Shown piece after piece: positions 22,232 to 62,810 of a stretch of DNA of 64,000 nt. The stretch is from Asaia sp. W19 (GTDB taxonomy: Bacteria; Pseudomonadota; Alphaproteobacteria; Acetobacterales; Acetobacteraceae): positions 186,001 to 250,000 of the forward strand of contig NZ_PNQZ01000061.1 in NCBI RefSeq assembly GCF_003994335.1. The letters run 5' to 3'. The notes beneath the pieces are model-generated. The model was not told where the DNA came from. It saw only the letters and a list, made by a program, of their open reading frames with translations, and ran no database searches. Made by a program: the position numbers and the translations under genes. Position 1 is the first letter of the stretch; the number at the start of each line of letters is the position of its first letter.

Positions 22232-22304
22232 GGGGAAGACACTCCAAAATGCACCGGGAGATGAAGGTGCGATTCTGGCCGTGGAAAACCTGGGATGTGA
22301 TGGA

Positions 22305-22366
22305 TCCCGGGCCTCTTTAGCGCTGTTGTTTAGCCTCGCCGCAATCCGGCCTTTCAAATCGCGAGG
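22305..22366 (-). ncRNA. SAM-II riboswitch in the metZ leader
   Basis: Read on the minus strand, the leader shows the SAM-II (metA-type) layout. P1 pairs CCTCGC with GCGAGG. The conserved loop start GATTTGAA, an ATTGCGG block, CTAAAC after P1, and the hallmark GCGCTAAAGAGG at the 3' side follow. A GGCC in the first loop can pair with the 3' GGCC to close the pseudoknot. The element is about 60 nt, as usual, and ends about 75 nt before the metZ ATG. A GCACC/GGTGC hairpin (22251-22270) between them could be the expression platform. SAM-II elements typically sit upstream of metA, metX, metZ or metC in alphaproteobacteria. Confidence 0.8.
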
Positions 22367-22400
22367 GTCAATCGCTCGTCGGAGCGCTTGACGGCTGCGA

Positions 22401-22481: not shown

Positions 22482-22555
22482 GCGGGTGTAGTTCAATGGT
22501 AGAACGGCAGCTTCCCAAGCTGCATACGAGGGTTCGATTCCCTTCACCCGCTCCA
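22482..22555 (+). tRNA. tRNA-Gly (anticodon CCC)
   Basis: A complete 74-nt cloverleaf including encoded CCA. The acceptor GCGGGTG pairs with CACCCGC. The D arm is GTTC...GAAC, the anticodon stem GCAGC/GCTGC holds the loop TTCCCAA (anticodon CCC), and the T arm is GAGGG/CCCTT around TTCGATT. It reads GGG codons. The prophage begins directly behind it, so its 3' end is the likely attachment core. Confidence 0.95.
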
Positions 22556-22612
22556 GAAAACCCCTGAAAATTTGTTAGAAAACCCTTGCAGCGCCTTACT
22601 TTCTCCAATACG

Positions 22613-22632
22613 ATAAACCAGTAACGTAACTA
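22613..22632 (+). promoter_or_regulatory. candidate phage RNA polymerase promoter, copy 0
   Basis: ATAAACCAGTAACGTAACTA matches the dispersed consensus ATAAACCTCTAACGTKACHR except at the two bases AG. It lies 38 bp before the first RNA polymerase gene, so the polymerase would stimulate its own gene. Confidence 0.5.
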
Positions 22633-22670: not shown

Positions 22671-23498
22671 ATGGGTCCTAACAGCGTCCTACAAGATGAT
22701 CCTACTGCCCATTCCGAAGTGCCCGCCGGAATGTCGGAAATATTTCGTCAGGCTCAGTGGGAGATGGTCGGAGTCCGCCGCGCTCAGAAGATTTTCATGG
22801 AAGATATGGAGCGCGCTACCGCCAGTGGTCGGCTGCACGAGACGGGGCCGGGGAGGAGGTTATTACGAAAGATTGTGACGCCTCTAGCCGAAGAGATCCG
22901 GAATGAAACTGACAAGGCTATAGCTGCGGCTGGTGAACGAGGGAGGAAGAGCGTAGTTGGAGATTGCTTCATGGCTTTCACGGACAAGCACCTAGAGGTA
23001 GCTATCGTCGCTACAGCCACGGTCCTCGGTAACGTTGGAATGTCCTTCGCACCGCCTGTGACGCGCTTATCAAAGTCTGTGGCGGCCGCCTTACGAAGCC
23101 AGCTTTCATACAACCAGATGCAAGAGCAAGCGAAGGCGGAGAAGTCAGAAGGAGATGACACGCTCTCCGTACTCCTCACACGCTTTAAGGAACGCTACAA
23201 GAATCCAAATGTGCGCCAATGGAAGGAATGGACACGACGCGCCGGAGTTTTGGTTAAAGCGGAATGGTCTGAAATTCACAGTATAACGGTTGGGGCGTGG
23301 CTCATTGAGCGCATATGCGTAGCGTCCGAGGGTGCGATTGTCACGGCTGAGGTTGCGGCGGACCCCACAAAGCCCTGCGCTCGCTGCGTCGTTGCGTCAT
23401 CTCAGACCGTACAGGATTTACTGGATGATGCCGAGAAAATGAGCCTTTCGGCCCCCCGTCTGATGGCTATGGTCACACCGCCGCTGACTTGGAAATAA
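22671..23498 (+). CDS. phage single-subunit RNA polymerase, N-terminal part
   Basis: A 275-residue protein matching the region of T7-type RNA polymerase before the catalytic palm. Late segments align with T7: SEIHSITVGAWLIERICVAS corresponds to the T7 EDSIHVGVRCIEMLIES stretch. LSAPRLMAMVTPPLTWK corresponds to the T7 region ending VVPPKPW, where T7 continues TGITGGGYW. Here a TAA follows immediately. The next frame resumes in phase with FSGGFY. It is shorter than the equivalent 400-odd residues of T7. GAGG lies 7-8 nt before the ATG. Together with the next gene it probably forms a two-chain polymerase; a recent nonsense insertion is the alternative. Confidence 0.78.
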   Translation: MGPNSVLQDDPTAHSEVPAGMSEIFRQAQWEMVGVRRAQKIFMEDMERATASGRLHETGPGRRLLRKIVTPLAEEIRNETDKAIAAAGERGRKSVVGDCFMAFTDKHLEVAIVATATVLGNVGMSFAPPVTRLSKSVAAALRSQLSYNQMQEQAKAEKSEGDDTLSVLLTRFKERYKNPNVRQWKEWTRRAGVLVKAEWSEIHSITVGAWLIERICVASEGAIVTAEVAADPTKPCARCVVASSQTVQDLLDDAEKMSLSAPRLMAMVTPPLTWK

Positions 23499-23514
23499 AC
23501 CTCTAACGTGTTGA
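23495..23514 (+). promoter_or_regulatory. candidate phage promoter at the RNA polymerase seam, copy 1
   Basis: ATAAACCTCTAACGTGTTGA matches 15 of 15 core positions of the consensus. The TAA that ends the N-terminal polymerase part is formed by its first bases (23496-23498). The motif lies inside the extra DNA that separates the two polymerase parts. Confidence 0.55.
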
Positions 23515-25274
23515 GATATCTTATGTCGGAATTGTTCTCAGGCGGGTTTTACGTTCACAAGATTCCTCTGGTACGCACAAATCGCCGCAGCTTTAATGAT
23601 AAAGGGCGCGCCTCGGTAAGTGCGGCTGACCTGGACTCAGTTAACCGGGTCCAAGCCACACCTTGGAGGGTGAATCAGTTCATCCTTGACCTTCAGACCA
23701 AAGCCTTTGCGGACCGGACTAGTCTGCCGGGGGTGCCTCTCGAACTCCCCATCACGCCCTTAGGCTCTCCCTCATACGAGGCATGGCGCGACAGTCTCCG
23801 AACCGGGCGGCGCCACAGAGCAATGTCAGATACAACGTGGGAAGCGCTGACGGATGAACAGCGCAAAGAGCACAAATCCACTATGGCAGGAATCTACGAT
23901 CACAACGCAAAGGTTGTCGGGAGGAAGTTCGCTTTCATGGACCTCATTTCTGTGGCTCAAGAGCTGCGCAACGAGAGGGCCGTATATTTCCCGCATAATA
24001 GGTGTTTTAGAGGGCGGATTTACCCAGCCATAAATTCGGGTCCGCATCCACAGGCCTCGGATGTAGGTAAGGGAGGAATCCATTTTGCCGAGGGGAAGAA
24101 GCTCGGAAGCCTGGGATATTTTTGGCTCCTGGTCCGCCTCGCCAACTGCGCTGGTAAGGACAAGATGACGCTCAACGAGCGTGTGTCCTGGGCGCTGGAC
24201 CATAAAGATCAGGTAAGAGATTCGGCAGCGCACCCAGAGGAGTGTCTATGGTGGGCGGAAGTTAACGGCGGAGACGAAGCCTGGAGCCTTCTCGCCACCT
24301 GCCACGAACTGAACCTGGCTTGGTCCTCAGGTAATCCGGAGGACTTCATAAGTCATCTGCCGGTTCCGATGGACGGTACCTGTAATGGCTTGCAGCATCT
24401 GAGCGCCCTGGCGCTTGATCCTATCGGGGCGGCAGCTACCAATCTCTCCGCCCGCAATACCAGACAAGACATATATATAGATGTGGGGCAGAGCGTTCGT
24501 GAGCGGGTTCTCAGCGATGCCTCTCAAGGTATTTCCGAGGCCTTGGAATGGGAGCCTCGTATGGGTGACACAGGCTTCTTGCGTAGCCTCGTAAAACGCG
24601 CAGTGATGACAACTCCCTACGGAGTTACCGCGCGCGGCATCAGAACCCAGATCCTTAACGACGATGCGATTATGGGAGGGATCAGCGAAGGGAAGGGGAA
24701 GGCCGCCGAGTATATTCGGGGACACATTATGGGGGCCTTGGAGGGCACCGCAGGGGCCGCTCAAGGGGTGATGGGTTATCTACGCGAGTGCGCCTCAGAA
24801 CTGGCGAAAGCCGGGGTGCCCTTCTCGTGGCAAACCCCCTCCGGGTCAGTGATCGAGCAGGCATATAGGGAGCCCGTTCAGCACAGAGTGCCTACGCTGT
24901 GTGGGCATCTTGTGGTCTACGATGAATCAGATGCCCAGCCGCTGTCCGTCCGTAAGCAAGCGGCGGGAGCGCCCCCAAACTATGTGCACAGCTTTGACGG
25001 CGCGCACCTCTCAATGACGGTTAATAAAGCATTTAACCAAGGCATTAGGTCGTTCGCGATGATACATGACAGCTACGGCACCCATGCCGCAGACACTCAG
25101 ACGCTTGCGAGGTCACTGCGGGAGAGCTTTGTAGAGATTTACCAGCAGGATCGATTAGCACAGACGGCATCTGAGATAGCTGATTATGCCCCGCATGTTT
25201 ACCTGCCAGAGCCTCCTAAGAGAGGGGCATTTGATATCAATGAAGTGCTGCGGTCTGAGTTCTTCTTTTCATGA
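23508..25274 (+). CDS. phage single-subunit RNA polymerase, catalytic C-terminal part
   Basis: A 588-residue T7-family RNA polymerase palm and fingers. It opens at SGGFYVHKIPLVRTNRR, equivalent to T7 TGGGYW...PLALVRTHSKK. Catalytic motifs are intact (numbered from GTG 23508). MDGTCNGLQH has metal-binding Asp289, KRAVMTTPYG has Lys363 and Tyr371, and HDSYGT has Asp521. These match T7 Asp537, Lys631, Tyr639 and Asp812. FRGRIYP matches the T7 WRGRVY segment. The C-terminus SEFFFS resembles T7's SDFAFA. The start may be GTG 23508 or ATG 23523; neither has a strong ribosome binding site, and homology begins near 23535. It is in the same phase as the N-terminal part, separated by one stop and about 12 extra codons. 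Confidence 0.85.
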   Translation: MLRYLMSELFSGGFYVHKIPLVRTNRRSFNDKGRASVSAADLDSVNRVQATPWRVNQFILDLQTKAFADRTSLPGVPLELPITPLGSPSYEAWRDSLRTGRRHRAMSDTTWEALTDEQRKEHKSTMAGIYDHNAKVVGRKFAFMDLISVAQELRNERAVYFPHNRCFRGRIYPAINSGPHPQASDVGKGGIHFAEGKKLGSLGYFWLLVRLANCAGKDKMTLNERVSWALDHKDQVRDSAAHPEECLWWAEVNGGDEAWSLLATCHELNLAWSSGNPEDFISHLPVPMDGTCNGLQHLSALALDPIGAAATNLSARNTRQDIYIDVGQSVRERVLSDASQGISEALEWEPRMGDTGFLRSLVKRAVMTTPYGVTARGIRTQILNDDAIMGGISEGKGKAAEYIRGHIMGALEGTAGAAQGVMGYLRECASELAKAGVPFSWQTPSGSVIEQAYREPVQHRVPTLCGHLVVYDESDAQPLSVRKQAAGAPPNYVHSFDGAHLSMTVNKAFNQGIRSFAMIHDSYGTHAADTQTLARSLRESFVEIYQQDRLAQTASEIADYAPHVYLPEPPKRGAFDINEVLRSEFFFS

Positions 25275-25293
25275 TACACCTCTAACGTGACAA
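25274..25293 (+). promoter_or_regulatory. candidate phage promoter, copy 2
   Basis: ATACACCTCTAACGTGACAA starts at the last base of the RNA polymerase stop codon. From 25279 on it is part of a 46-bp repeat shared with copy 3. Confidence 0.6.
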
Positions 25294-25324
25294 TTTAACT
25301 TACGTAATAGAACAGTAGCCGCTG
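25279..25324 (+). repeat. 46-bp direct repeat, copy A
   Basis: Identical to 26757-26802. It joins the promoter-like core CCTCTAACGTGACAA to the second dispersed element TTACGTAATAGAACAGTA (25300-25317) and ends GCCGCTG. Confidence 0.9.
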
Positions 25325-25343
25325 CCCTTCGGGTGGCGGTTTT
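25319..25343 (+). terminator. intrinsic terminator behind the RNA polymerase gene
   Basis: CCGCTGCCC (25319-25327) pairs with GGGTGGCGG (25331-25339) with two G-T pairs, followed by TTTT. It would stop host RNA polymerase after the polymerase genes, like the early terminator of T7. It lies about 30 nt inside the transcript from the copy-2 promoter. Confidence 0.55.
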
Positions 25344-25362
25344 GCATATCTGGAGGTTCCCT

Positions 25363-26070
25363 ATGAACTGTGACGACAAAGTTCTCGCCTGGCATTTCGT
25401 AGGGGACACCCTTCGGGACGGCCGCAAAGTCCCCGCTGATGGAGAGATTCTGACCCATGTAGGCCCGGTCATCCCGTGCCAGCAGGGCCTACACGCCAGC
25501 GAACGCCTGATTGACGCCCTACAGTACGCACCCGGCCACATGCTATGTCGTGTCGAGTGCTGGGGCGACGTTGAGCATGATGCTGACGACAAGCTGGCAG
25601 CACGTCATCGACGTATCATTTGGCGACTTGATGCAGAGCAGATCCTGAGAGCGTTTTCGCGCCGGTGTGCGCTCGACGTTATTCATCTTTGGGATGCTCC
25701 ATTTGTCGTGCGGGAATACCTTGAAACTGGGAATGAGGCGCTAAGGGCCGCCGCAGGGGCCGCCGCAAGGGACGCCGCATGGGACGCCGCAGGGGCCGCC
25801 GCAGGGGCCGCCGCAAGGGACGCCGCATGGGCCGCCGCAGGGGCCGCCTCAAGGGACGCCGCATGGGCCGCCGCAGGGGCCGCCGCATGGGCCGCCGCAG
25901 GGGCCGCCGCAAGGGACGCCGCATGGGCCGCCGCAGGGGCCGCCGCAAGGGCCGCCGCAAGGGCCGCCGCAAGGGACGCCGCATGGGCCGCCGCAAGGGA
26001 CGCCCAGAACAATATCCTGATCGAAATGTCTGAGGCTGAGCACAAGCGGGCTATTGGAGAAGGCGCATGA
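25363..26070 (+). CDS. phage protein with an Ala-rich tetrapeptide-repeat tail
   Basis: A 235-residue protein starting MNCDDKVLAWHFVGDTLRDG, with GGAGG 7 nt before the ATG. The first 125 residues form a compact domain (GLHASERLIDALQYAPGHMLCRVE...DDKLAARHRRIIWRLDAEQIL) of a type seen next to replication genes in phages, without known function. Residues 130-213 are 21 copies of an AA[GRW][AD] unit encoded by a 12-bp tandem repeat, probably a long helix. The stop overlaps the next gene (ATGA). It is the first gene behind promoter copy 2. Confidence 0.7.
   Translation: MNCDDKVLAWHFVGDTLRDGRKVPADGEILTHVGPVIPCQQGLHASERLIDALQYAPGHMLCRVECWGDVEHDADDKLAARHRRIIWRLDAEQILRAFSRRCALDVIHLWDAPFVVREYLETGNEALRAAAGAAARDAAWDAAGAAAGAAARDAAWAAAGAASRDAAWAAAGAAAWAAAGAAARDAAWAAAGAAARAAARAAARDAAWAAARDAQNNILIEMSEAEHKRAIGEGA
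25750..26001 (+). repeat. 12-bp tandem repeat, 21 units
   Basis: Twenty-one consecutive units of GCCGCANGGGMC, with the third codon GGG, AGG or TGG and the fourth GCC or GAC. One unit has TCA instead of GCA. The repeat stays in frame and encodes the Ala-rich tail. Copy-number change would alter the protein length by four residues per unit. Confidence 0.95.
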
Positions 26071-26751: not shown

Positions 26752-26771
26752 ATAAACCTCTAACGTGACAA
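26752..26771 (+). promoter_or_regulatory. candidate phage promoter, copy 3
   Basis: ATAAACCTCTAACGTGACAA is the copy closest to the consensus. It precedes the operon that begins with the 51-residue protein and the single-stranded DNA-binding protein. Confidence 0.6.
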
Positions 26772-27253: not shown

Positions 27254-27955
27254 ATGGCGAAAGCCCCTAAGAAAATTCTCACGTCCCCTAAGGGCACCCT
27301 GCAATTCCCCTCACTCCGCGTCCCGAACACCAAGTTCAAACCTGAGGGCGCTTTCGAGGCTCCGCTGATCCTGCGGATAGACGATGCAGACACGCAGGCG
27401 TTCCTGGCCAAGCTGGAGCCATTCTACAAGCAGGCTGAAGCCTTTGCTCAGGAGCAGTTTGACGCACTTCCCAAGGGAAGCCAGAAGCGTCTAGGCGAGG
27501 TCAATATGAACCCGCTCTATTCCGAGGTGTATGACAAGGACACTGAGGAGCCGACCGGCGAGATCAAGTTCAACTTCAAGATGAAGGCCTCGGGCGAACG
27601 CAAGGATGGCACGAAGTGGACTTCCAAGCTCCCTGTGTTCGACGCCAAGGGCAAGAAGCTCGACCCGGTTCCTGACGCCTGGGGCGGAACGGTCGCGAAG
27701 GTGTCCTTCGAGGTCAAGAAGGACTTCAAGACGGGCCAGTTCGGCTACTTCCTTCCCGGCACGGGTGCAGGCGGTCTGACACTGGCTCTGGAAGCTGTTC
27801 AGATCATCGAACTGTCCTCGGGCGGCGCTCGTGATGCCGGTGGATACGGCTTCGGCAAGGAAGAAGGCTACGAGGGCTCAGACGAGGCCGAGGATACGGG
27901 CTGGAGCGGCTCTGACGACACAGGCGCTTCGGCGGGGGACAACGACGATTTCTGA
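27254..27955 (+). CDS. phage single-stranded DNA-binding protein (T7 gp2.5 type)
   Basis: A 233-residue DUF2815/gp2.5-like SSB that coats single-stranded DNA and recruits the replication proteins. The N-terminal KKILTSPKGTLQFPSLRVPNTKF and central KFNFKMKASGERKDGTKW match the family OB-fold region. The C-terminus is an acidic tail (GSDEAEDTGWSGSDDTG...DNDDF) ending in Phe, as in gp2.5, where the tail contacts polymerase and helicase. It lies in the same relative place as in T7, before the resolvase and primase-helicase. Confidence 0.85.
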   Translation: MAKAPKKILTSPKGTLQFPSLRVPNTKFKPEGAFEAPLILRIDDADTQAFLAKLEPFYKQAEAFAQEQFDALPKGSQKRLGEVNMNPLYSEVYDKDTEEPTGEIKFNFKMKASGERKDGTKWTSKLPVFDAKGKKLDPVPDAWGGTVAKVSFEVKKDFKTGQFGYFLPGTGAGGLTLALEAVQIIELSSGGARDAGGYGFGKEEGYEGSDEAEDTGWSGSDDTGASAGDNDDF

Positions 27956-38953: not shown

Positions 38954-39403
38954 TCAACTTGCGGACAAGAACAGATTTCGCTCCTTGGCGCGCCTCAGGG
39001 ACAAGCCCCGGCTCACCTTGCCCTTGATCAGGTTCCACTTCGGGAACTCGTCAGCGGCCCCGTTAAGGTCCCCTGCATTGAGCTTCTTCAGCATTGTTGA
39101 GCGGCTGAATGCCGTCTCCCCGATGTTGTAGACCAGGCTCAGCACAGCAGCCCCTTGGCGGTCCGTCAGAGGCACTTTCACAAGGCGCTCGGTAGTGTCC
39201 CAAAAGGATACCAGAACGTTCCTCAGCAAGGCTGCTGCCGTAGCCTCTGACATGGTTGGCGTTGAGGCTGTGACGGGCTTGCCGTTGAGCAGGTAGGTAG
39301 ACCCATAGCCGATTGTCCAGACGCCCCCCTGGTCCTGATAGGGGCGCGCTCTGAAGCCCTCGAAAGAGGCCACCAGAGAGACGGCCTCCTCAGGGAAGCC
39401 CAT
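38954..39403 (-). CDS. endolysin, T4-type lysozyme (GH24)
   Basis: 149-residue muramidase. The catalytic triad has T4 lysozyme spacing: Glu15, Asp24, Thr30 in FEGFRARPYQDQGGVWTIGYGS. The later VYNIGETAFSRSTMLKKLNAGDLNGAADEFPKW and GKVSRGLSLRRAKERNLFL match the family. No signal peptide or SAR helix, so a holin is needed. The start overlaps the stop of the candidate holin gene (TAATG). Confidence 0.93.
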   Translation of the reverse strand: MGFPEEAVSLVASFEGFRARPYQDQGGVWTIGYGSTYLLNGKPVTASTPTMSEATAAALLRNVLVSFWDTTERLVKVPLTDRQGAAVLSLVYNIGETAFSRSTMLKKLNAGDLNGAADEFPKWNLIKGKVSRGLSLRRAKERNLFLSAS

Positions 39404-39582
39404 TAAGGGGCCTTAGGGGTCTGGAAGGTACTGGCGGCCTTGAGAACGGCGGTCAGAACGGCCATTGCAAAGGTCGTGATGGTGGCCGTGCTCCAGTCCG
39501 TGGAAAGGGCCGCACCGGCTGCGGTAGCGATGGTTGCAACGGCAGCCGCGAGGGCAGCGCCCTCAGTCTTGGTGATCTTCAT
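39403..39582 (-). CDS. small membrane protein, candidate holin
   Basis: 59 residues (MKITKTEGAALAAAVATIATAAGAALSTDW...ITTFAMAVLTAVLKAAS) with two hydrophobic helices. It sits immediately upstream of the endolysin with a TAATG overlap at both ends. Position and topology suggest a class II-like holin; no family match is claimed. Confidence 0.6.
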   Translation of the reverse strand: MKITKTEGAALAAAVATIATAAGAALSTDWSTATITTFAMAVLTAVLKAASTFQTPKAP

Positions 39583-39827
39583 TATTTCGTCCAGAAGGAT
39601 GTGAGGAGGTGGTCGCCTAGCCAGCCGAGACCGACTGAGACGGCGGCCCAGATGCCGAGGACCTTGGCCCGGTCGTTCTCCAGTGCGGAGATGCGGTCCT
39701 CATGGTCCTCGATCTTCTTGTCCTGCTCCTTGTCACGGGTGAGCAGCATGTCCAGCTTGCCGTCCATGCGCCCGACCAAAAGGATCAGGGTGTCAGTGTT
39801 GTCCGCTGACTTCTCAGCCGGATTCAC
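39582..39827 (-). CDS. membrane-anchored coiled-coil lysis-cassette protein (XhlA-like)
   Basis: 81 residues from GTG 39827, which overlaps the upstream stop (GTGA). A coiled coil (MDGKLDMLLTRDKEQDKKIEDHEDRISALENDRAK) is followed by one C-terminal membrane helix (VLGIWAAVSVGLGWLGDHLL). This resembles XhlA/hemolysin-type phage proteins that assist holins. It is part of a tightly overlapped lysis cassette. Confidence 0.6.
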   Translation of the reverse strand: MNPAEKSADNTDTLILLVGRMDGKLDMLLTRDKEQDKKIEDHEDRISALENDRAKVLGIWAAVSVGLGWLGDHLLTSFWTK

Positions 39828-40021
39828 GTCTTGATCTGAGCCCCCTGAAGGTCCGCATGAGCGCGTTCTGCAAGGGCCACTAGCTGAGCCCATTCATCCT
39901 CAGTCGGCTCCCGCTTAGCCTCGAAGATGCCCTCAAGAAGCTGGATAAGCTCCTGGATAATGGGAATGTCAGAGGCGACCGCAGAGAGGATCGAGGCGAT
40001 AAGGGGAAGTGCCGCCAGCAT
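39824..40021 (-). CDS. small phage protein with a hydrophobic N-terminus
   Basis: 65 residues: MLAALPLIASILSAVASDIPIIQELIQLLEGIFEAKREPTEDEWAQLVALAERAHADLQ. A hydrophobic N-terminal helix precedes an amphipathic region. It overlaps its neighbours (TAATG upstream, GTGA downstream). Probably part of the lysis cassette; function unknown. Confidence 0.6.
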   Translation of the reverse strand: MLAALPLIASILSAVASDIPIIQELIQLLEGIFEAKREPTEDEWAQLVALAERAHADLQGAQIKT

Positions 40022-40380
40022 TACTTGACGCCTCCGATGTTGTGGGTGGCGAGGTAGCTGTAGAAGGCAGACACTGCCGCCTGAGCTTCCGTAGCCTCAA
40101 GAGAGGTCACAGAGGCCCCAGCCTGAGCATCGAGCACAAGCGGATGCAAGGCGTTGTATGCCTTCTGATCGGCCACCTTGATTTCACTGACAGTTGCAGC
40201 ATTGGGAGGGCCGAAGGAGCCCTCAACGTACTGCTTGGCGACCGTTTCAGAGGCCGTGAGGGTGGCCTGAGAGGCGTAAAGGGTCTGGTAGACGGACCCC
40301 TGAAGGGAACCCGCACAGGCTGTTAGAAGGCTTGTGAGGGCAAGTGCAAAGGCCCACTTAGGGCATTTTAGTGTGTATAT
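40021..40380 (-). CDS. phage lipoprotein, probable ATA start
   Basis: The frame contains no ATG, GTG or TTG before its clearly coding part. The only fitting start is ATA 40380, 6 nt behind AGGAA. This yields a signal peptide (KWAFALALTSLLTAC) with lipobox LTAC|AGS, then about 95 residues (GSVYQTLYASQATLTASETVAKQYVEG...) ending THNIGGVK. The stop overlaps the next gene's ATG (TAATG). By place in the lysis cassette it could act in outer-membrane disruption, as spanin-type lipoproteins do, but it is longer than typical o-spanins. The gene is missed by canonical ORF calling. Confidence 0.65.
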   Translation of the reverse strand: MYTLKCPKWAFALALTSLLTACAGSLQGSVYQTLYASQATLTASETVAKQYVEGSFGPPNAATVSEIKVADQKAYNALHPLVLDAQAGASVTSLEATEAQAAVSAFYSYLATHNIGGVK

Positions 40381-40417
40381 TTCTGGTTCCTATCATGAGG
40401 TGATCCTGCTGTGCTGG

Positions 40418-40606
40418 TCAGGCGGACGGCGCAGTGTAGCTGCTACCGATCGGGTGCTGGCCTTCGTGGTCGGGGATAGCTGCCGTCCCGTCTGGGGGGG
40501 ACCAGTCGGATCTGCCGTCCCAGAGCACCCGGTCGATAACGTATCCGATCGGGTGTTCAACCGTAGCTGCGGTAAGATATACCGAGTAGGCGTCAGGCTG
40601 CGTCAT
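40418..40606 (-). CDS. small protein behind the tail fibre gene
   Basis: 62 residues (MTQPDAYSVYLTAATVEHPIGYVIDRVLWDGRSDWSPPDGT...) with GAGGAG 7 nt upstream. It lies 11 bp behind the tail-fibre stop. The size and place suggest a tail-fibre accessory protein, which is inference. Confidence 0.55.
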   Translation of the reverse strand: MTQPDAYSVYLTAATVEHPIGYVIDRVLWDGRSDWSPPDGTAAIPDHEGQHPIGSSYTAPSA

Positions 40607-40617
40607 GTTTGTACTCC

Positions 40618-41922
40618 TCAGGCGCTAAATTCATCGATGATGCCGACGCCGTTGGCTCCTGCGCCTCCCGCATTTTGGGCTGCTTGCTGGTTCGCATGAG
40701 CGCCGCCGCCGCCGCCCCAGCCGCCTGCGTTCCCGCCGGGCTGCGATGTGCCGCCATTATAGACAGTGATACCGGCCCCACCCGCACCCATAGGGCTATT
40801 GCTGCCAGGGGGAGCTGCGGCTGTTCCCAGCACAGCGATACCGGGCAAACCGCCCGCCGCTGCAACCGCGTAAACAATGTTCGGGCCGCTCGGCAGTCCA
40901 TTGCCAGGGCATCCCGGAATTGACGACGCAGCGCTGGAGGATGTTTGTGTTCCGGCATAGCCGCCAAGCCCACCGGGGCATGAGAGCGCAGCAAACGAGC
41001 CAAACGGGCCGAATGTGCTGGCGCCTCCGGTTCCGCCCGCCTTGCCAGTCACGCCAACGCCACCGACGCCGATGCTGATCGGGATCTGCTGACCAGGAGT
41101 GGCGGGGAAGATCGCCTCTACATAGGCACCCGCGCCACCGCTTGAAGCGCAGGACGAGCCGCCCCCACTGGTGTTATCGGCGCTTCCCCCCGCCGCACCG
41201 CCCGCCGCCTGGAGGCGAACACGAATTTTATAGACGCCAGCCGGGACAGTGTAAGTCTGGGACGATGTAATGACGGTCGTATTGAGGTTGCGACCGGAAT
41301 TCAGCCGGGCGGCAAATTCGGTCGTAGCGAAAGACTTGTCGCTCGTTCCGAGAGGCGCGGTCGTTCCAGTCGGATTCTGCATAAAGGAGACCGGCCCTGC
41401 CACGCTCTGCTGGCCCGTGTCGGCAGTTTCAAGGTAGTTACCGGCTGCCTGATAGTTACCGGCTGGCTGATAGTTACCGGCTGCCTGATAGTTCCCGGCT
41501 GGTTGCACTACGTGCCAATTTCCCGTGCCGTCCTGAAAGGCCGGATTGCCAGTCGGGGTGTCTATGCTTGCCTTGACGATACCCCCCAGATCACCGCCAG
41601 CATTAGCCACAAGCCCAGCGAACAGATCGCCCCACGAAGCGCCGGACGCACCGGGGACAGACACATTCCCCGCTACCGTCGAGACCCAGAATTTTCCTGG
41701 GGTGCTGCCATCGGGGACAACTGCATTCAGCCCGTACCCGCCCACCGAGGACGCCAAAGAGCTGTTGAAAGGGAGCAGCGCCCGGAGAGAGAGTGCGTCA
41801 AGAGAAACTCCCCCCACTGTCCCTGCATCAAGGGCACCAGTCAAAGCCCCTAGGACGGTCACATTGTTTAGGGTTGGGGAAGGGAACGCTTCATTACTGG
41901 ACAAGGGCAATTTCCCCACCAT
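40618..41922 (-). CDS. tail fibre protein with a Gly-rich C-terminal domain
   Basis: 434 residues. The N-terminal part is beta-rich and Ser/Thr/Gly-rich. A hexapeptide repeat [AP]AGNYQ (four copies, about residues 139-162) and a PTGTTAPLGTSDKSFATTEFAARL linker follow. The last 200 residues form a glycine-rich domain beginning TYTVPAGVYKIRVRLQAAGGAAGG and ending GVGIIDEFSA, a known phage fibre tip type. Probably receptor-binding. Confidence 0.75.
   Translation of the reverse strand: MVGKLPLSSNEAFPSPTLNNVTVLGALTGALDAGTVGGVSLDALSLRALLPFNSSLASSVGGYGLNAVVPDGSTPGKFWVSTVAGNVSVPGASGASWGDLFAGLVANAGGDLGGIVKASIDTPTGNPAFQDGTGNWHVVQPAGNYQAAGNYQPAGNYQAAGNYLETADTGQQSVAGPVSFMQNPTGTTAPLGTSDKSFATTEFAARLNSGRNLNTTVITSSQTYTVPAGVYKIRVRLQAAGGAAGGSADNTSGGGSSCASSGGAGAYVEAIFPATPGQQIPISIGVGGVGVTGKAGGTGGASTFGPFGSFAALSCPGGLGGYAGTQTSSSAASSIPGCPGNGLPSGPNIVYAVAAAGGLPGIAVLGTAAAPPGSNSPMGAGGAGITVYNGGTSQPGGNAGGWGGGGGAHANQQAAQNAGGAGANGVGIIDEFSA
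41435..41506 (-). repeat. 18-bp tandem repeat in the tail fibre gene, four copies
   Basis: Units TAGTTACCGGCTGCCTGA with small changes at 41435, 41453, 41471 and 41489. They encode the [AP]AGNYQ repeats on the minus strand. Confidence 0.9.
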
Positions 41923-42190
41923 TGTTCCAGAGCGTTCCGACTGAGCCCGGCACGGTCGGAAGTCCCCGCAGGTCCCCCGTCAGGAAGTAGTTCGCGCTTT
42001 GGAGTGCCTCAGCAAGTGTTGGGGCAATTGCCTCCGCCGTTTGGGCGGCTGCTGTAACCTGTGGCACAGCGACCTGGAGGGCGGTCTGCAAATCCAAGGC
42101 CGCTGCAACAGTCGCCGTATTGTCGTAGAAGAAAGAGCCGCAAATCTGCGTCGGCCCGGGTGTGGACAGGGTGCCGCTCATGGGCGCCAT
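41894..42190 (-). CDS. small virion-region protein before the tail fibre
   Basis: 98 residues (MAPMSGTLSTPGPTQICGSFFYDNTATVAAALDLQTALQ...). An Ala/Thr/Gln-rich helical middle is followed by GSVGTLWNNGGEIALVQ. It overlaps the tail fibre start by 29 bp and starts directly behind the connector gene. Role unknown, probably structural. Confidence 0.5.
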   Translation of the reverse strand: MAPMSGTLSTPGPTQICGSFFYDNTATVAAALDLQTALQVAVPQVTAAAQTAEAIAPTLAEALQSANYFLTGDLRGLPTVPGSVGTLWNNGGEIALVQ

Positions 42191-42811
42191 TTACTCCGTG
42201 ATATAGAGGGGCTGTATAGATGCTGGGCCGCCGCTGCTCTCCATCGCAATTGCTTGCCCCTGAACGTCCCCTAAAAGACCTGTGAAGGTGTCCTCCCAGG
42301 TCTGAGTTGACGGGTGATCGCACCATAGCCCCGCATATTTGAGGGCGGCGTAGGTGACGAGATCAGGGCAGGCCAGCGTGAACTCGTTCGTATCCGTGAG
42401 GTTGGATAGACTGCTAACCGCGCCATAATAGTGAAAGAGAACCGACCCACCCTGCGGAATGGCCCCCCGGAAATGGATCGTGCTCCCAATCCGGGCGTAA
42501 GCCTCAGGGTTTATCTGGTTGGGCAGTCCGACAATCTGACGGAAAGCGCGCCGCTCCAGCGCGCGGCTTCGGTCTTGACAAGAGAGGCTGGCGAATACGT
42601 CAATCATCTCAAGAAAATCGTCAGGCATGGTAGCGTACGTCATCTGCCCTTGCGCGAGGATAAGCCTGTGGCGTTCCATCGAAGGGACCCTGAGGGACCG
42701 CTGGATACGCGCCAAGCCTCGATTGACGAAATTGATTGCCTGTACCTGGGAGCAGTCGTCCCGGTTCAGCTCGCCGTTGAAGTCGCTGAGGATATCCTGA
42801 AGGGCGGCCAT
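42191..42811 (-). CDS. head-tail adaptor / tail tubular protein A-like
   Basis: 206 residues. An N-terminal helical part (FVNRGLARIQRSLRVPSMERHRL) and a MPDDFLEMIDVF segment lead to a C-terminal FTLACPDLVTYAALKYAGLWCDHPSTQTWEDTFTGLLGDVQGQA helix region. This layout fits T7 gp11-like adaptor proteins forming the ring below the portal. The overlap with the previous gene is TGATG. Confidence 0.65.
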   Translation of the reverse strand: MAALQDILSDFNGELNRDDCSQVQAINFVNRGLARIQRSLRVPSMERHRLILAQGQMTYATMPDDFLEMIDVFASLSCQDRSRALERRAFRQIVGLPNQINPEAYARIGSTIHFRGAIPQGGSVLFHYYGAVSSLSNLTDTNEFTLACPDLVTYAALKYAGLWCDHPSTQTWEDTFTGLLGDVQGQAIAMESSGGPASIQPLYITE

Positions 42812-43107
42812 CAGACCTCCTTCGAGGTCGCAAGGAACGCCTCAAGATTATCCCTGCGGAGCCGCGCTACGATATCCTTGGCCTCCATGTTCCAAGGGTC
42901 GAGACCTTGGGCACACCAGAGGTCGAATACGGCGGCTGGAATGGAGGCGACTTTCATGTATTCGCGCTCCCTCACATTTTTCGAGGCTAGGCGCTCGTCC
43001 CGCAGGTTTGCGAGGAAGTCATCAGAGAGTTCTTGCTGACGGAGGATCACAAGCGATCCGTCATCCTGCCCGATCAAGTCGGTGTGGACAGTGTTGAAAA
43101 CGTTCAA
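42811..43107 (-). CDS. small neck-region protein
   Basis: 98 residues (MNVFNTVHTDLIGQDDGSLVILRQQELSDDFLANLRDERL...). The compact KVASIPAAVFDLWCAQGLDPWNMEAKDIVARLRRDNLEAFLAT part is of a kind found between capsid and adaptor genes in T7-like phages. It lies behind a hairpin that follows the capsid gene. Function unknown. Confidence 0.6.
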   Translation of the reverse strand: MNVFNTVHTDLIGQDDGSLVILRQQELSDDFLANLRDERLASKNVREREYMKVASIPAAVFDLWCAQGLDPWNMEAKDIVARLRRDNLEAFLATSKEV

Positions 43108-43139
43108 GGGCCTGCTTTGAAGAATGTGAAGGGGAAGTT

Positions 43140-43163
43140 GAGGAGCCCCGTTAGAGGCTCCTC
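43140..43163 (-). terminator. hairpin behind the capsid gene
   Basis: 8-bp perfect stem GAGGAGCC/GGCTCCTC with an 8-nt loop. No T run follows on the minus strand. It occupies the same place as the T7 late terminator behind the capsid gene. Its minus-strand loop and flank read CCTCTAACGG, the core of the candidate phage promoter. Confidence 0.45.
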
Positions 43164-43172
43164 AGAGTGGCT

Positions 43173-44117
43173 TCAGGCCAAGTTCGTGATCAGCGCCGAG
43201 CCCTTGAAGTTCATGTGCTTCAGGGAGAACTCGCCAAGGATCTGAACATTGGTGCTGTCACCAGTGACGGCCAGCGTCTGGCGGAACCAGTCACGGAAGG
43301 TGACGAGCTTCCACATCGCCGGATCGAACAGCAGGGCATCCGCCGTGGTATCAGGGGTGCCCGATGCGCCAGTGCCGCGAATGAAGCGGTTCATCACGAC
43401 CTTAAGGGTCCCGTAAGGGGACTTGTAGATCGAAATGTTGTGGTTCAGCGTCGTGTCCTGGTTCTGGACGAACACAGTGCGGTTAGAGGCCGAGAAGCCA
43501 GCAATCGTGTTGGCATCGCTTGGGCGAACCATGATCGTGTTGGCATCAGCACCGGCATTGTAGCTGGCCTGCTGCGTCGTCAGGAGCATCTGCTCAGTGA
43601 GCGCCGTGGCTGCCGGAGCGGTGCCCGTGGCATTCAGGCCAGATCCTGCCGTGTAGACCATGCTGGGGTCGATCATGGCCTGGTAGCCAGCCATCTCACG
43701 GGCCGTGCCGTCCGCACCTGCGGCCTTGCCCTGGCCGGTGCCGATGAAGGCCCACTCTCGGTCGCGCTTCAGCTCCTTGGAGCGCAGGCCGAGCTGGTAA
43801 GCAAGCTCCTGACCACGGCCATAGGTTTTGGTCGCCTGCATTGAGCCCGTCACGCTGGCAGTCTTGGTGAAAATCTGCGTGGTGTTGGAGCGCATGACAG
43901 TCGGGTTGAACTGTGCAGCCGGGGCGCTGGCGCCTTCGACCTGGGCGTTCTGGCCCACGTTCATCAGCGAATCTTCCTGCCACTCGAACAGCTTCTGAGT
44001 GGACTTATCGCCGCCGATCATCGACTGGAACGGCGTAGCGGTCGGAGCGATATTGGAGATAACGTCCGAGATATCTTCTTTGGTGCCTACAACATCGTAG
44101 GAGGAAACAGTGGTCAA
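43173..44117 (-). CDS. major capsid protein (SU10/DUF5309-like)
   Basis: 314 residues. The start TTVSSYDVVGTKEDISDVISNIAPTATPFQSMIGG matches the DUF5309/SU10-type capsid group, probably HK97-fold, rather than T7 gp10. The later YKSPYGTLKVVMNRFI and LFDPAMWKLVTFRDWFRQTLA blocks fit the same group. The scaffold gene lies directly upstream on the minus strand, the normal order. High expression is expected. Confidence 0.8.
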   Translation of the reverse strand: MTTVSSYDVVGTKEDISDVISNIAPTATPFQSMIGGDKSTQKLFEWQEDSLMNVGQNAQVEGASAPAAQFNPTVMRSNTTQIFTKTASVTGSMQATKTYGRGQELAYQLGLRSKELKRDREWAFIGTGQGKAAGADGTAREMAGYQAMIDPSMVYTAGSGLNATGTAPAATALTEQMLLTTQQASYNAGADANTIMVRPSDANTIAGFSASNRTVFVQNQDTTLNHNISIYKSPYGTLKVVMNRFIRGTGASGTPDTTADALLFDPAMWKLVTFRDWFRQTLAVTGDSTNVQILGEFSLKHMNFKGSALITNLA

Positions 44118-44126
44118 ATATCTACC

Positions 44127-45053
44127 TTAGTGAAGTTTCGCCATGAACGCCGCAGTGATGGCGTCAGGGTCGGTGGGGTTTGCGCGAAGGGATTTCAGAG
44201 CCTTGTTCAGGCCATCCTTCTCGGACGCATCAGCATTTGAACCGGCTGAGCCCGGTTTGATCACCCGGCTGGGCTTATTGACGACCTTCTGGACCTGAGC
44301 ATCCACGGTCTTGCTGCCGGTATCGTAGAGGTATGCCTTGTGGAGGAGGCGGAGCATCGTCGGGTCTGTGACATTCTCGATGCCTTCAACGCCGCTCTTA
44401 CGGGCAAATTCAACGAGCTTGGGGTAAACGGCGGGGAAGTCCTTGATGCCCTTCATAGGGTCGGTAAGTTCCGCAGCGCAGGCCTTTGCGGCCTCCTGAC
44501 GGGCATCCTCAGCGGCCTTGCGGGCTTCCTCCAGACGCCCGTTCACCTCACTGTGGAGGAACGCGAGGTCCTTGTAGGCTGCCTCAGCATCAGCGCGGAC
44601 CTGCTTGAACGTCTCAGGGTCCACATTAGGGTCCCGGCTGATTGCAAGCCAGTCGAGGTCCTTGTAGGGCGCGTAGCGCTCCTCAGCGCGCTTCCACATT
44701 TCAGTGTAGGCGGCTTCGAGGCGATCCTTTTGAGCCGTAGCTGCTTCAGATGCCTTGGCAGCCTCAGCGAAGCGGCCAGAGAACTGCCCGTGCTCCTCAA
44801 TGAGGCTACGCAGTTCCTTCAGCTTGTAGGTCTTGATCTCCTCGCCGAAGGGGAGTTCAACGTCTGGATCGTCATCTTCGGCAGGAGCCTCGGCGCGCTC
44901 AGGCTCCGCTGCGTCCGTCTGCTCTGGTTCAGGGGGCTTCCTGCGAGGCTCCTCAGAGACCTCAGAAGGTGCCTGAGAGGCTTCCAAGTGGGCCGCGAAG
45001 GCATCCGTAGCGTCGAGTTCAACAGGCGCTGTAGCGGCACCCTCAGGGGCCAT
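44127..45053 (-). CDS. capsid scaffolding protein
   Basis: 308 residues from ATG 45053 (AGAGGG 6 nt upstream; a longer frame to 45080 is less likely). An acidic N-terminal third (EVSEEPRRKPPEPEQTDAAEPERAEAPAEDDDPDVELPFG), a coiled-coil middle (EAAKASEAATAQKDRLEAAYTEMWKRAEERY), and a basic C-terminus that would bind capsid subunits. It lies between portal and capsid genes. Confidence 0.78.
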   Translation of the reverse strand: MAPEGAATAPVELDATDAFAAHLEASQAPSEVSEEPRRKPPEPEQTDAAEPERAEAPAEDDDPDVELPFGEEIKTYKLKELRSLIEEHGQFSGRFAEAAKASEAATAQKDRLEAAYTEMWKRAEERYAPYKDLDWLAISRDPNVDPETFKQVRADAEAAYKDLAFLHSEVNGRLEEARKAAEDARQEAAKACAAELTDPMKGIKDFPAVYPKLVEFARKSGVEGIENVTDPTMLRLLHKAYLYDTGSKTVDAQVQKVVNKPSRVIKPGSAGSNADASEKDGLNKALKSLRANPTDPDAITAAFMAKLH

Positions 45054-45076
45054 GAGAGGCCCTCTGTTAAGCAGGA

Positions 45077-45358
45077 TCAATATGTGTCCTCATGGTTGTG
45101 TAGGGCATCGGCCATCTGCTCTCCGGCTGAGTGGCGCATCTGCAATTCTCGGCAGATTTCAGTCAGCGCGTATTGGAGCAGGTGGTGATATTCCCTGGCC
45201 TCCCGGCCTGCCTCCCCCGGCTTTGCGGCGCAGAGGGCGGATAGGTTGTAGTTCGTCAGATCATCGACCACAGCGCAGAAAGTCGTGTCATCGAGCAGGC
45301 GCTTTGCAGCCGCGCCGCGCTCAATCAAGAGCGCAGCCTGGTCCTCGTTAGGGTGCAT
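45077..45358 (-). CDS. small protein between portal and scaffold
   Basis: 93 residues from ATG 45358, overlapping the portal stop (TGATG). Helical (NEDQAALLIERGAAAKRLLDDTTFCAVVDDLTNYNLSAL...). Similar small proteins sit here in many podoviruses; role unknown. Confidence 0.55.
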   Translation of the reverse strand: MHPNEDQAALLIERGAAAKRLLDDTTFCAVVDDLTNYNLSALCAAKPGEAGREAREYHHLLQYALTEICRELQMRHSAGEQMADALHNHEDTY

Positions 45359-47406
45359 CAACCGGGGTCAATCCTTGCTTGTGCATCGCCCATTGCGAGG
45401 GCCTGTTTCGACATGAGCAGCTCAGTCGTATCGACCGCCACCTTGTGATTGAACTGATCCTGCTTGAGACCCTGATCGGCATGAGCCTTCTCAGTCTGAA
45501 GCTGAATCTTCGCCATGCCCTGCTCATACTTCTGCTGGGCTTCCTCACGAGATAGCTGAGCATTGAGCTTAGCGGCCTCGGCATTGGCCAGCTTGACCTG
45601 AGCATCTGCCTGCTTAACAGCGAGGTCAGCCTGCTGCATCGGATCGGGCTGCGGGGGCGGAATCTGGTCAGGAGGCAGCAGAACGCTGGTTGCATCCTTG
45701 ATCCCCATGTTTTCCAGAATTCGGCTAGCGACGTAGAACTTCTTCTCAGGCGCGTAAGCCGGACCATACCCATTGGCTGGGTTGGATAGGTACTGGTCGA
45801 TTGCCTGCCACTTCTGGGCCTCTTTCGCCTGCTCGCCGTACCCAAGAGCCAACGAGATATCCATCTCGGTGTCTTCGGGCCACTGAGTGAAGTCAGTCTG
45901 CGTCCAAACCCCGTTGGACTCCTGAATGAGCTTCTGCGGCTCCTCATTCTCCAGGATCAGCCGGTAGACCATTGAGTAGAGCTTGCGAAGGAATACCTCA
46001 GCAAAGTTCCTGGCGATGATCTTCTGACGGATTTGCGAGACCGCGATCAGGTCCTGCACCATGCCCTGAGAATTCTGGGTAGAGATGGCGTCCTTGTTCA
46101 GCCCCTGTGACAGACTGGATATGCCGCTGATTTCCTCGCCGCCCTGCTGAAGCTGGGACATGGTTTGGAACACGAATGGGTTAAGGGACGCCTGCGGCAG
46201 CGGAGCCACAGAGGAAATTACGTCGCGGACGTTGACGATGCCGCCGAGGCGGTTTTCCATCAGTTCGCGTGGGTTCGTCACGCCCCCCTGAGCGACCATC
46301 ATCCGGGGATTGGTGGTGATCAGCGAGTGGTTGATGATCGAGCGCGTCAGGAACGTCTGCGCGTTCTGCGTCGGAACCAGAAGAAGGCCGTAGTTGGCGC
46401 CGTAGAATGCATGGGACCGAGGCAGAGCGCAGAAGTCGATGAAGGGCTTATGGCTGACAGGTTCTTTGTCCAGAACCTGATTGCAGCACAGATCGACCTT
46501 GTAGAGCTGGCTTGTGCCATCCCCCTCAATGTCGAGGTGCATATAGCACTCATAGACGGTGTAGAGCTTGCGGGCATCCTGCGTGTCCCCGTCAAGGTCT
46601 GACAGGCCGATGATATCGCCCGTCTGCCCGAACCGCTGCACGACCTCAGGATTGAGCCGCTCGTCCATGCCGTCATCATCAGGTAGGTCCTCAATGATGC
46701 TTTTGGGGTACCCGTGCTTGATCAGCTCGGATTTGGTCATGGACTGGCGGTGGAACACCAGGTTTGCCTCCTCAATGGACGTTGCCATTTGGGAGATGCC
46801 GAACTCCTCAGGAGGAATTGGGCGCAGGCGGACTTGGGAGCGGTTGCGCTTGCACTTCACGAGAACGCGCTTCAGAGTACCGTCCTCGTCCCCTTTCTCG
46901 ACCTCCTCAACGGAACTCGTAGGGTCCTTCATAAGGAAGGCCATGAGCTGCTCGTAAGACGGCTCACTCAGGTCATAGAACTGGTCCTCATAGGAGGCCT
47001 CCCAATAGACCTTGCAGACCCCGTTACGGGCCTTCAGCGCGTCCTCGATAACCGTCTGGAACACCTGAAAGCCTGAGTTCTGCGAGAAGATAACGCGGGT
47101 AACGTAATCCGTGCGGAACTTGGCCTGCATATCCGTCTCGCCGGGGGCCGTGTTAAAAACGACCGGACGAGTGTTCCCTGAAAAGACCTCAAGGAGCTGG
47201 GCCTTCATGCTCTCAATACCGACATAGACATTCATCGAGCGGTAGTCAGAGTCTCCCTTGTGGAGCATTCCAGGCTTTTCGGCATCATAGTAGCGGGAGA
47301 CGCGCTCCCGTTCCTTGGACAGCTTCGAGCTGCCGCCGTAGCCGTAAGACTGGCCAATGCCGGTCTGGGCAATAGCGGCAATCGCCGCGTCTGTCAGTTT
47401 TGCCAA
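45358..47406 (-). CDS. portal protein
   Basis: 682 residues, TTG start behind AGGAG. The dodecameric head-tail gate and terminase docking site. Features: N-terminal KERERVSRYYDAEKPGM, MNVYVGIESMKAQLLEVFSGNTRPVVF, the EECKRNRSQVRLRPIPPEEF wing region, the central PLPQASLNPFVFQTM clip/stem part, and a long C-terminal Gln/Ala/Lys-rich coiled coil (about 600-670), which is typical of portal barrels. It lies next to terlarge with a 1-bp gap. Confidence 0.85.
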   Translation of the reverse strand: MAKLTDAAIAAIAQTGIGQSYGYGGSSKLSKERERVSRYYDAEKPGMLHKGDSDYRSMNVYVGIESMKAQLLEVFSGNTRPVVFNTAPGETDMQAKFRTDYVTRVIFSQNSGFQVFQTVIEDALKARNGVCKVYWEASYEDQFYDLSEPSYEQLMAFLMKDPTSSVEEVEKGDEDGTLKRVLVKCKRNRSQVRLRPIPPEEFGISQMATSIEEANLVFHRQSMTKSELIKHGYPKSIIEDLPDDDGMDERLNPEVVQRFGQTGDIIGLSDLDGDTQDARKLYTVYECYMHLDIEGDGTSQLYKVDLCCNQVLDKEPVSHKPFIDFCALPRSHAFYGANYGLLLVPTQNAQTFLTRSIINHSLITTNPRMMVAQGGVTNPRELMENRLGGIVNVRDVISSVAPLPQASLNPFVFQTMSQLQQGGEEISGISSLSQGLNKDAISTQNSQGMVQDLIAVSQIRQKIIARNFAEVFLRKLYSMVYRLILENEEPQKLIQESNGVWTQTDFTQWPEDTEMDISLALGYGEQAKEAQKWQAIDQYLSNPANGYGPAYAPEKKFYVASRILENMGIKDATSVLLPPDQIPPPQPDPMQQADLAVKQADAQVKLANAEAAKLNAQLSREEAQQKYEQGMAKIQLQTEKAHADQGLKQDQFNHKVAVDTTELLMSKQALAMGDAQARIDPG

Positions 47407-47407
47407 A

Positions 47408-49003: not shown

Positions 49004-49569
49004 GCCTCAGCGACTGAGAGCTGTGCCTCGGTCTTCACAACCGGCTTGGTCTTGGTGAACTCAAGGACGGTTTTGATGGCGCTCAGCCGGTCGCGCGGCG
49101 AGTAGAGGTATCTACTTGTTGGACGGGCCTCGTGTTCAGTCGGAGGTGCCGTATCTTTGGTGATGACGATTTCAACGGCAGCGGCCAGCGCAACGTCTGC
49201 CATTGCACCTTCGTCAGTGGTGATGCCTTCTTCGATCATCTTCTTCACAATTCTGTCTGCACGTTCCGCCCCTTCGCGCCTGATCTTGGCGAGGAGCTTC
49301 TTCTTGCCTGCCCAGCCAGGAGGGACGCCTTGGCAGCCCCACTTCTTCAGCTCGACAAGGCGCTTTATACGCTTGGAGCTTGCAACCTGGACTTCCTCAT
49401 ACTCTTCACGAGTTGCGGGGTAATGAGGCACCTTTCCGACGAGGCACGGGTACCAGATCCCCCTTACCTTGTCCTGCAACAGGGGATGCCGGTTGAGCGG
49501 CTTTGCGGTCGGTGGTCGGACGATCCTCGGCAGACCGTCCTCGGCAATATAACGTTCGTAGGCTGCCAA
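48979..49569 (-). CDS. probable terminase small subunit
   Basis: 196 residues from TTG 49569 with GGAG 9 nt upstream. The place before the large subunit, a basic helical middle (SSKRIKRLVELKKWGCQGVPPGWAGKKKLLAKIRREGAERADRIVKKMI) and a C-terminal helix that overlaps the large-subunit start fit a DNA-recognition small terminase. No strong family signature is visible. Confidence 0.6.
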   Translation of the reverse strand: MAAYERYIAEDGLPRIVRPPTAKPLNRHPLLQDKVRGIWYPCLVGKVPHYPATREEYEEVQVASSKRIKRLVELKKWGCQGVPPGWAGKKKLLAKIRREGAERADRIVKKMIEEGITTDEGAMADVALAAAVEIVITKDTAPPTEHEARPTSRYLYSPRDRLSAIKTVLEFTKTKPVVKTEAQLSVAEAWLDRISE

Positions 49570-59189: not shown

Positions 59190-59209
59190 ATAAACCGCTA
59201 ACGTTACTG
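59190..59209 (+). promoter_or_regulatory. candidate phage promoter, copy 4
   Basis: ATAAACCGCTAACGTTACTG differs from the core consensus only at one base (G for T). It lies 10 bp before the ATG of the first right-arm gene. Confidence 0.55.
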
Positions 59210-62790: not shown

Positions 62791-62810
62791 AAAAATCTCT
62801 AACGTTACCG
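62791..62810 (+). promoter_or_regulatory. candidate phage promoter, copy 6
   Basis: AAAAATCTCTAACGTTACCG keeps the CTCTAACGTTAC core. It lies 36 bp before the next gene. Confidence 0.45.

What the first reader, a model, noticed from the sequence alone, without database searches (positions are those of the whole stretch)
22671..25274. Phage RNA polymerase gene split in two at a copy of its own putative promoter
The two frames are in the same phase. T7-like homology runs up to PPLTW and resumes at SGGFY, where intact relatives have only about four residues between. Here about 12 extra codons contain a TAA, the motif ATAAACCTCTAACGTG and a new start. The catalytic residues of the second part are intact. 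A split single-subunit polymerase has a known precedent in phage N4 RNAPII (two chains), but a break made by an internal promoter would let the catalytic chain be transcribed separately and autocatalytically.
Basis: partly seen in the sequence, partly recalled or inferred. Interest (0 to 1): 0.85.

Follow-up and report, generated by a model that had tools for sequence, protein, structure and literature searches.

The report
Prophage RNA polymerase in two chains
A prophage of an acetic acid bacterium carries a T7-type RNA polymerase whose gene is cut in two at the hinge between promoter-binding and catalytic parts, and relatives in other bacteria are cut at the same place, so this looks like a natural two-subunit enzyme rather than a broken gene.

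Summary
The split is real and not a peculiarity of this isolate. The N chain (22671-23498) is the promoter-binding domain, the C chain (about 23523-25274) the intact catalytic part; they abut in the family profile. Twelve distinct loci (C chains 35-50% identical to the window's) are cut at the same point, each with N-chain sequence separately upstream. Junctions range from a 4-nt ATGA overlap to a 1.35 kb gap holding other genes, and frames differ in 9 of 12, so sequencing error or readthrough does not explain it. The loci form one clade; another group of metagenomic phages and Fussvirus pelagiphages split independently, slightly further on, and N4 RNAPII further still. The cut lies in T7's C-linker, pivot of the initiation-to-elongation rotation. 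Both chains show purifying selection in the one close pair. A phage-specific repeated element sits at the junction clearly in 3 loci, the window included, and weakly in 1, of 12: an internal promoter is plausible here but did not generally cause the split. Splits of this enzyme were known (N4, pelagiphages); this break point and lineage were not found in nine paper searches. New variant of a known kind.

The parts
22482..22555 (+). tRNA-Gly (ccc), integration site; attL 45-bp core 22512-22556 is repeated at 65921-65965 (attR, beyond the window), prophage about 43.4 kb
   Evidence: ARAGORN; direct repeat; integrase near the right end (L315:562-1803, PF00589)
22613..22628 (+). weak copy (3 mismatches) of the repeated element, upstream of the N chain
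22671..23498 (+). N chain, 275 aa: promoter-binding N-terminal domain of a T7-type RNA polymerase
   Evidence: phrog_414 positions 3-245, E 8e-17; RPOL_N E 1.3e-6, 28.5 bits, below Pfam cut-off 30.1; model pLDDT 69.9, Foldseek best hits T7 RNAP, E 4.5e-7; no PDB chain by sequence at E up to 10
23496..23498 (+). TAA that ends the N chain, in frame with the C chain
23495..23510 (+). exact copy of the repeated element ATAAACCTCTAACGTG at the junction, candidate phage promoter
23523..25274 (+). C chain, 583 aa from ATG 23523 (or 588 from GTG 23508): catalytic part with motifs intact
   Evidence: phrog_414 248-816, E 1.6e-158 (from GTG); PF00940 E 3e-103; mitochondrial RNAP E 1.4e-70 and T7 RNAP E 1.4e-64; model pLDDT 85.1, residues 1-29 under 50
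25274..25289 (+). copy of the element (1 mismatch) touching the stop codon of the C chain; T7 phi1.1A and LUZ100 phi2 are annotated at about the same place relative to their polymerase genes
25318..25337 (+). terminator-like hairpin followed by a T run, just after that copy (8 such sites found in the region, 5.0 expected)
26752..26767 (+). second exact copy of the element; the 30 bases shown after it equal those after 25289
27254..27955 (+). T7-type single-stranded DNA-binding protein, next genes downstream
   Evidence: PF21265 E 1.1e-10
59190..59205 (+). further copy (2 mismatches) near the right end of the prophage
62791..62806 (+). further weak copy (3 mismatches)

Best explanation
The locus encodes a natural two-subunit T7-type RNA polymerase. 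The N chain (promoter-binding domain) and the C chain (catalytic core) are translated separately and assemble without a covalent C-linker, the hinge that in T7 RNAP must rotate between initiation and elongation. In the window the C chain may also have its own phage promoter at the junction, so that once some enzyme exists it raises C-chain and downstream transcription; in other members the chains are translationally coupled or lie further apart on the same strand. Shown: two ORFs, same break in 12 loci, purifying selection on both in one pair, domain identity. Inferred: assembly, activity, promoter function, any regulatory benefit.
For: Break falls between positions 245 and 248 of the family profile. 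Same break with N-chain sequence separately upstream in 12 of 12 distinct loci of the clade: window, G054 (its N chain frameshifted once), IMG/VR 3300002938 (close to G054), G197 = MAG Rhodospirillales RYN_442, IMG/VR L049-L053, Devosia enhydra, L223, L299 (N part cut by the contig end). N stop to C start: 4-nt overlap in 4, 22-50 nt in 4, and 217, 447, 990, 1345 nt; frames differ in 9 of 12; Shine-Dalgarno pairing better than 94% of random ATGs in 7 of 12. One clade (12 split rows plus broken L008, SH-aLRT 90, quick tree of 121 rows). dN/dS 0.129 (C, 577 codons) and 0.102 (N, 296 codons) between G054 and 3300002938. N and C distances correlate: Mantel r 0.73, p 0.0006, 8 loci, as co-inheritance alone would also give. 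C-linker = T7 251-296, with the rotation hinge (PMC3961267, passages); break at T7 278/283.
Against: No biochemistry; no complex modelled. The Asaia prunellae relative (L008/L142) is uninterrupted at the junction and lies inside the clade, though broken by frameshifts elsewhere and on a 3.3 kb contig: re-fusion, a second split, or an assembly fault. In G054 the N chain lacks one base, so it may be decaying or dispensable there. The N chain is poorly conserved (mean 26% identity against 45% for C, 8 loci). Shine-Dalgarno pairing is unremarkable in 5 of 12, the window among them. A prophage gene may be a relic.
Confidence: 0.78

Rival explanations
1. Decayed prophage gene: the TAA is a recent nonsense change and the polymerase is dead.
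For: It is a prophage; one stop in frame; G054 N chain has a frameshift; the A. prunellae copy is broken.
Against: Same break in 12 loci from several genera with different junctions; frames differ in 9 of 12; low dN/dS in both halves of the one close pair; C-chain motifs intact.
Confidence: 0.08
2. One fused protein is still made by stop-codon readthrough (window) or frameshifting (overlapping relatives).
For: Window halves are in one frame with a single TAA; overlaps of 4 nt exist in 4 loci.
Against: Frames differ in 9 of 12 loci; 217-1345 nt lie between in 4, with other ORFs in L049 and G197; all 12 C chains can start with ATG close to the break.
Confidence: 0.05
3. Intron or intein-like splicing rejoins the halves.
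For: ORFs lie between the halves in some relatives.
Against: No Rfam family reaches threshold in L018, L049, L050, L052, L053; in the eight loci aligned, N halves end soon after PxPW and C halves begin just before GG, with no extra domain at the ends.
Confidence: 0.03
4. The repeated element is not a phage promoter but an operator or other DNA-binding site of the prophage.
For: A helix-turn-helix gene lies at 60976-61329; at up to 3 mismatches no copy is on the strand of the structural genes, and the five at 4-5 mismatches look like chance; two far copies hold the palindrome TAACGTTA; a terminator-like hairpin follows one copy; the upstream copy is weak.
Against: Copies lie on the polymerase strand only in WIN 6:0 (up to 3 mismatches), G864 8:0, G862 4:0, G866 5:0, G860 2:0, each with control 0; less clear in G197 3:1, and not above control in G861 (4:2, control 4). 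Place just after the polymerase gene matches T7 phi1.1A and LUZ100 phi2. The full element is not palindromic.
Confidence: 0.3

Closest known systems
N4 RNAPII (gp15 + gp16, Schitoviridae)
   Same: Natural heterodimeric member of the T7-type RNA polymerase family.
   Different: N4 gp15 carries N-terminus, thumb and DX2GR, gp16 palm and fingers (PMC4496689, passages); its cut maps near T7 453, about 170 residues after the window's; the N4 enzyme has a truncated N-terminal domain and works with gp2.
Fragmented RNA polymerase genes of HTVC019P group III pelagiphages (Chen et al. 2019, PMC6811365, passages; Fussvirus records MT375523, AP013543)
   Same: T7-type polymerase in two genes, cut in or at the edge of the same linker; the authors argue that the interruption did not occur recently.
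   Different: Separate place in the tree; cut after GGYY, roughly 10-20 T7 residues further on; the two genes overlap, with none between, in the two records read. That these two records belong to group III is my inference.
Engineered split T7 RNAP (Segall-Shapiro et al. 2014, PMC4299498, passages)
   Same: Shows that T7 RNAP works from co-expressed fragments.
   Different: Artificial; of five seams the passages read name 67, 179 and 601; I cannot say whether one falls near 280.
LUZ100, T7-like phage with temperate features (PMC10134795, passages)
   Same: Phage-specific promoters before and just after the polymerase gene, proposed positive feedback.
   Different: Polymerase gene is uninterrupted (841 aa).

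Membership tests
T7-type single-subunit RNA polymerase family | Conserved catalytic motifs (DxxGR region, A, B, C) | tested here: met
   All in the C chain; PF00940 E 3e-103, phrog_414 E 1.6e-158; motif names recalled
T7-type single-subunit RNA polymerase family | One polypeptide | tested here: not met
   Two ORFs, also separate in the 11 other loci of the clade that were counted; the broken A. prunellae copy is continuous at the junction
T7-type single-subunit RNA polymerase family | Promoter-specific transcription | not testable with these tools
   No assay
N4 RNAPII | Cut between DxxGR (in gp15) and motif A (in gp16) | tested here: not met
   Window cut at T7 278/283; the FRGRIYP region is in the C chain
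Pelagiphage split polymerase (Fussvirus) | Cut after GG(G)YY, same clade | tested here: not met
   Window cut before GGFY; different clade
   Clear in window, L049, L053, weak in L050, absent in 8 of 12; promoter activity not tested

The most novel reading that the evidence does not exclude
The N chain behaves like a detachable, sigma-like promoter-recognition subunit of a two-part T7-type polymerase: because the hinge is cut, it can be released after initiation, and because the catalytic chain has its own self-recognised promoter, the ratio of the chains changes as the infection proceeds.
Probability: 0.2. Interest if true: 0.85.

Novelty: new variant of a known kind. Interest (0 to 1): 0.62.

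Why it matters
T7 RNAP is the textbook single-chain polymerase, and the rotation of its N-terminal domain about the C-linker bears on abortive synthesis and promoter escape. On the tree made here phages have cut the enzyme in or at the edge of this linker at least three times, and one lineage even has other genes between the halves. These enzymes let one ask directly whether a covalent hinge is needed for promoter escape, and whether a phage polymerase can work like a core plus sigma factor.

Tried and rejected
Isolate-only mutation or assembly error: rejected by 12 loci. L001/L024/L047/L220 come from one IMG/VR record that equals the window over the 8601 bases compared and were not counted as independent; G054 and 3300002938 are close kin, so 12 loci are about 11 lineages. 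Readthrough, frameshift, intron: see rivals. Rows relabelled or left out: L026 and L030 were flagged 'short' by my rule but are single ORFs of 831 and 748 aa and were relabelled intact; L008 and L038 are broken by frameshifts and were put in no group; contigs open at the 5' end (4, 4) were put in no group. Loci overlap, so their counts are not of distinct phages. Of the last scans, L316, L324 and L325 re-find L050, L053 and the Devosia gene, L317 is the contig of L056 (intact), and L318-L323 were not classified. The first genome-contig scan with a 2-row alignment found none. The N chain finds no phage record by tblastn at 1e-5 and no PDB chain by sequence. The element test used two word lengths and 12 phages without correction; window copies upstream of N and at the junction match only at p 0.018 (k=14) and 0.12 (k=18), and the L050 element is not above its control. 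In one search some chain ends were scattered by the aligner; the break was read from the printed block. No paper seen describes this split in Acetobacteraceae or this break point (searches; listings and passages only); most subscription papers are not held.

Full report
WHAT IS THERE. The window lies in G000:C191:186001-250000. A 43.4 kb prophage sits between copies of a 45-bp repeat, the 3' end of a tRNA-Gly gene, at 22512-22556 and 65921-65965, with a tyrosine integrase near the right end. A same-genus genome, G001, carries the 3305-base contig that the named collection lists as Asaia prunellae JCM 25354, so the host is inferred to be an Asaia. Right after the tRNA the prophage begins with two same-phase ORFs, 22671-23498 and 23508-25274, separated by a TAA and the element ATAAACCTCTAACGTG. 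The first matches positions 3-245 and the second 248-816 of phrog_414, RNA polymerase.

IS IT A BROKEN GENE? Relatives were sought in 195 genomes of near kin, 397 of the family, 395 of the order and 385 of the class (overlapping draws), in IMG/VR and in GTDB genomes. Most loci carry an uninterrupted polymerase: 74 of 101 rows (23 flagged short, of which four were relabelled afterwards, 4 open), and 146 of 159 (9 short, 4 open). Twelve distinct loci share the window's cut: the window; G054 (same family, same tRNA-Gly site and same flanking sulfhydrylase gene); IMG/VR 3300002938 (close to G054); G197, whose 26050-base contig the named collection lists as MAG Rhodospirillales RYN_442; IMG/VR L049, L050, L051, L052, L053, L223, L299; and Devosia enhydra ATCC 23634 (L141). 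In all 12 N-domain sequence lies upstream in another ORF: in G054 it is broken once by a frameshift, in L299 it is cut by the contig end, and in L025, L049 and L053 the contig begins at or near its start.

THE JUNCTION. In the eight loci aligned, N chains end within about a dozen residues after the PxPW motif and C chains begin a few residues before GG(F/Y); in Devosia the C chain has about 30 residues before GG, and in L299 the N ORF runs about 33 residues past its last aligned position. Distances from N stop to C start are -4, -4, -4, -4, 22, 24, 28, 50, 217, 447, 990 and 1345 nt; the C frame differs from the N frame in 9 of 12. In L049 a BRO-N/KilAC-type gene and two small ORFs lie between the halves; in G197 several small ORFs, one on the other strand. 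A fused product by simple readthrough is therefore impossible in most members. No Rfam family was found in the five loci searched.

EVOLUTION. In a quick tree of C parts (121 rows) the twelve split rows and the broken A. prunellae copy form one clade (SH-aLRT 90); its nearest kin are four intact rows (L054, L055, L057, L058; 99 for the joint set), the joint set of 18 holds five intact rows. The label needs three changes on the tree, and well-supported branches force three: this clade; a clade of metagenomic phage contigs (L076, L077, L081, L088, L090, L091, L098, L100 at support 100, with L283 by its junction); and Fussvirus pelagiphages (L127, L128), beside the intact HTVC011P. The other two groups are cut after the GG(G)YY motif, around T7 residues 288-300, not before it. 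A. prunellae is uninterrupted at the junction, which means re-fusion, a second split, or an assembly fault; the gene is frameshifted elsewhere. Selection: G054 against 3300002938 gives dN/dS 0.129 over 577 codons (C) and 0.102 over 296 codons (N); G054 lacks one base in N.

STRUCTURE AND MECHANISM. The N chain model (pLDDT 69.9) has helices, a beta hairpin at 223-242 that I equate with T7's intercalating hairpin (recalled), and a last helix before the cut; its best Foldseek matches are T7 RNAP chains (E 4.5e-7), with elongation complexes above the promoter complex 1cez (E 0.06), which I do not interpret at this confidence. The C chain model (pLDDT 85.1) is the polymerase core, with residues 1-29 under pLDDT 50. 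[quoted passage not shown] Cutting here leaves both folded parts whole and removes the tether.

THE ELEMENT. Words of the stretch just after the C stop were compared with the junction, against 277-560 random stretches of the same phage (uncorrected). At k=14/k=18 p was 0.0018/0.011 (window), 0 of 486/0.008 (L049), 0.006/0.009 (L053) and 0.09/0.011 (L050, at the N end, about 450 nt before C). In the other eight (G054, its near-copy 3300002938, L223, L051, L052, L299, G197, Devosia) every p exceeds 0.1. An element is shared between upstream of N and after C, but not with the junction, in L223, L052 and G197. In window, L049 and L053 it begins 24-30 nt before the C start. Copies lie on the polymerase strand only in window (up to 3 mismatches), G864, G862, G866 and G860, controls 0; the L050 element (G861) is not above its control (6 against 4) and G197 has 3:1. 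The place just after the polymerase gene is where T7 phi1.1A and LUZ100 phi2 are annotated, and LUZ100 also has a phage promoter before its polymerase gene with proposed positive feedback. So a self-promoter for the C chain is plausible in the window, but is one of several junction types. Against it: no close copies on the strand of the structural genes, the upstream copy is weak, and two far copies hold a short palindrome.

WHAT IS KNOWN. N4 RNAPII is a heterodimer cut elsewhere. Chen et al. 2019 reported that polymerase genes of all HTVC019P group III genomes except HTVC011P are fragmented into two parts and that this did not occur recently. Engineered T7 RNAP works in fragments. The present lineage adds a further natural cut point, in alphaproteobacterial prophages and metagenomic relatives, with separated genes in some. 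I rate it a new variant of a known kind.

Noticed in passing
L076, L077, L081, L088, L090, L091, L098, L100, L283: A second clade of metagenomic phages with the polymerase cut about 20 residues later; the junctions printed show TAATG- or ATGA-type overlaps or near overlaps.
   Followed up: partly
L049:753-1604: A BRO-N / KilAC antirepressor-like gene sits between the two polymerase halves.
   Followed up: no
L038 (G547) against L016 (G068): Closely related distant polymerases, one uninterrupted (869 aa), one broken into two frames: recent frameshift or error.
   Followed up: no
window 25274-25340 and 26752 onward: The element and the 30 bases shown after it are the same at both places, and a terminator-like hairpin follows the first copy.
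   Followed up: partly
window 38954-58519: Endolysin, tail, head, portal and terminase genes run on the strand opposite to the replication and polymerase genes, unlike T7 (recalled); no close element copies are on that strand.
   Followed up: partly
window 25333-26070: DUF7666 protein with a long Ala/Arg/Trp repeat; a similar gene start follows the polymerase in Asaia prunellae (L008:1-471, minus strand).
   Followed up: no
window 22296-22375 (-): SAM-alpha riboswitch upstream of the sulfhydrylase gene next to the integration site.
   Followed up: no
model of window 22671-23495: The N chain model matches T7 elongation-complex structures better than the promoter complex 1cez; confidence is modest.
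   Followed up: no
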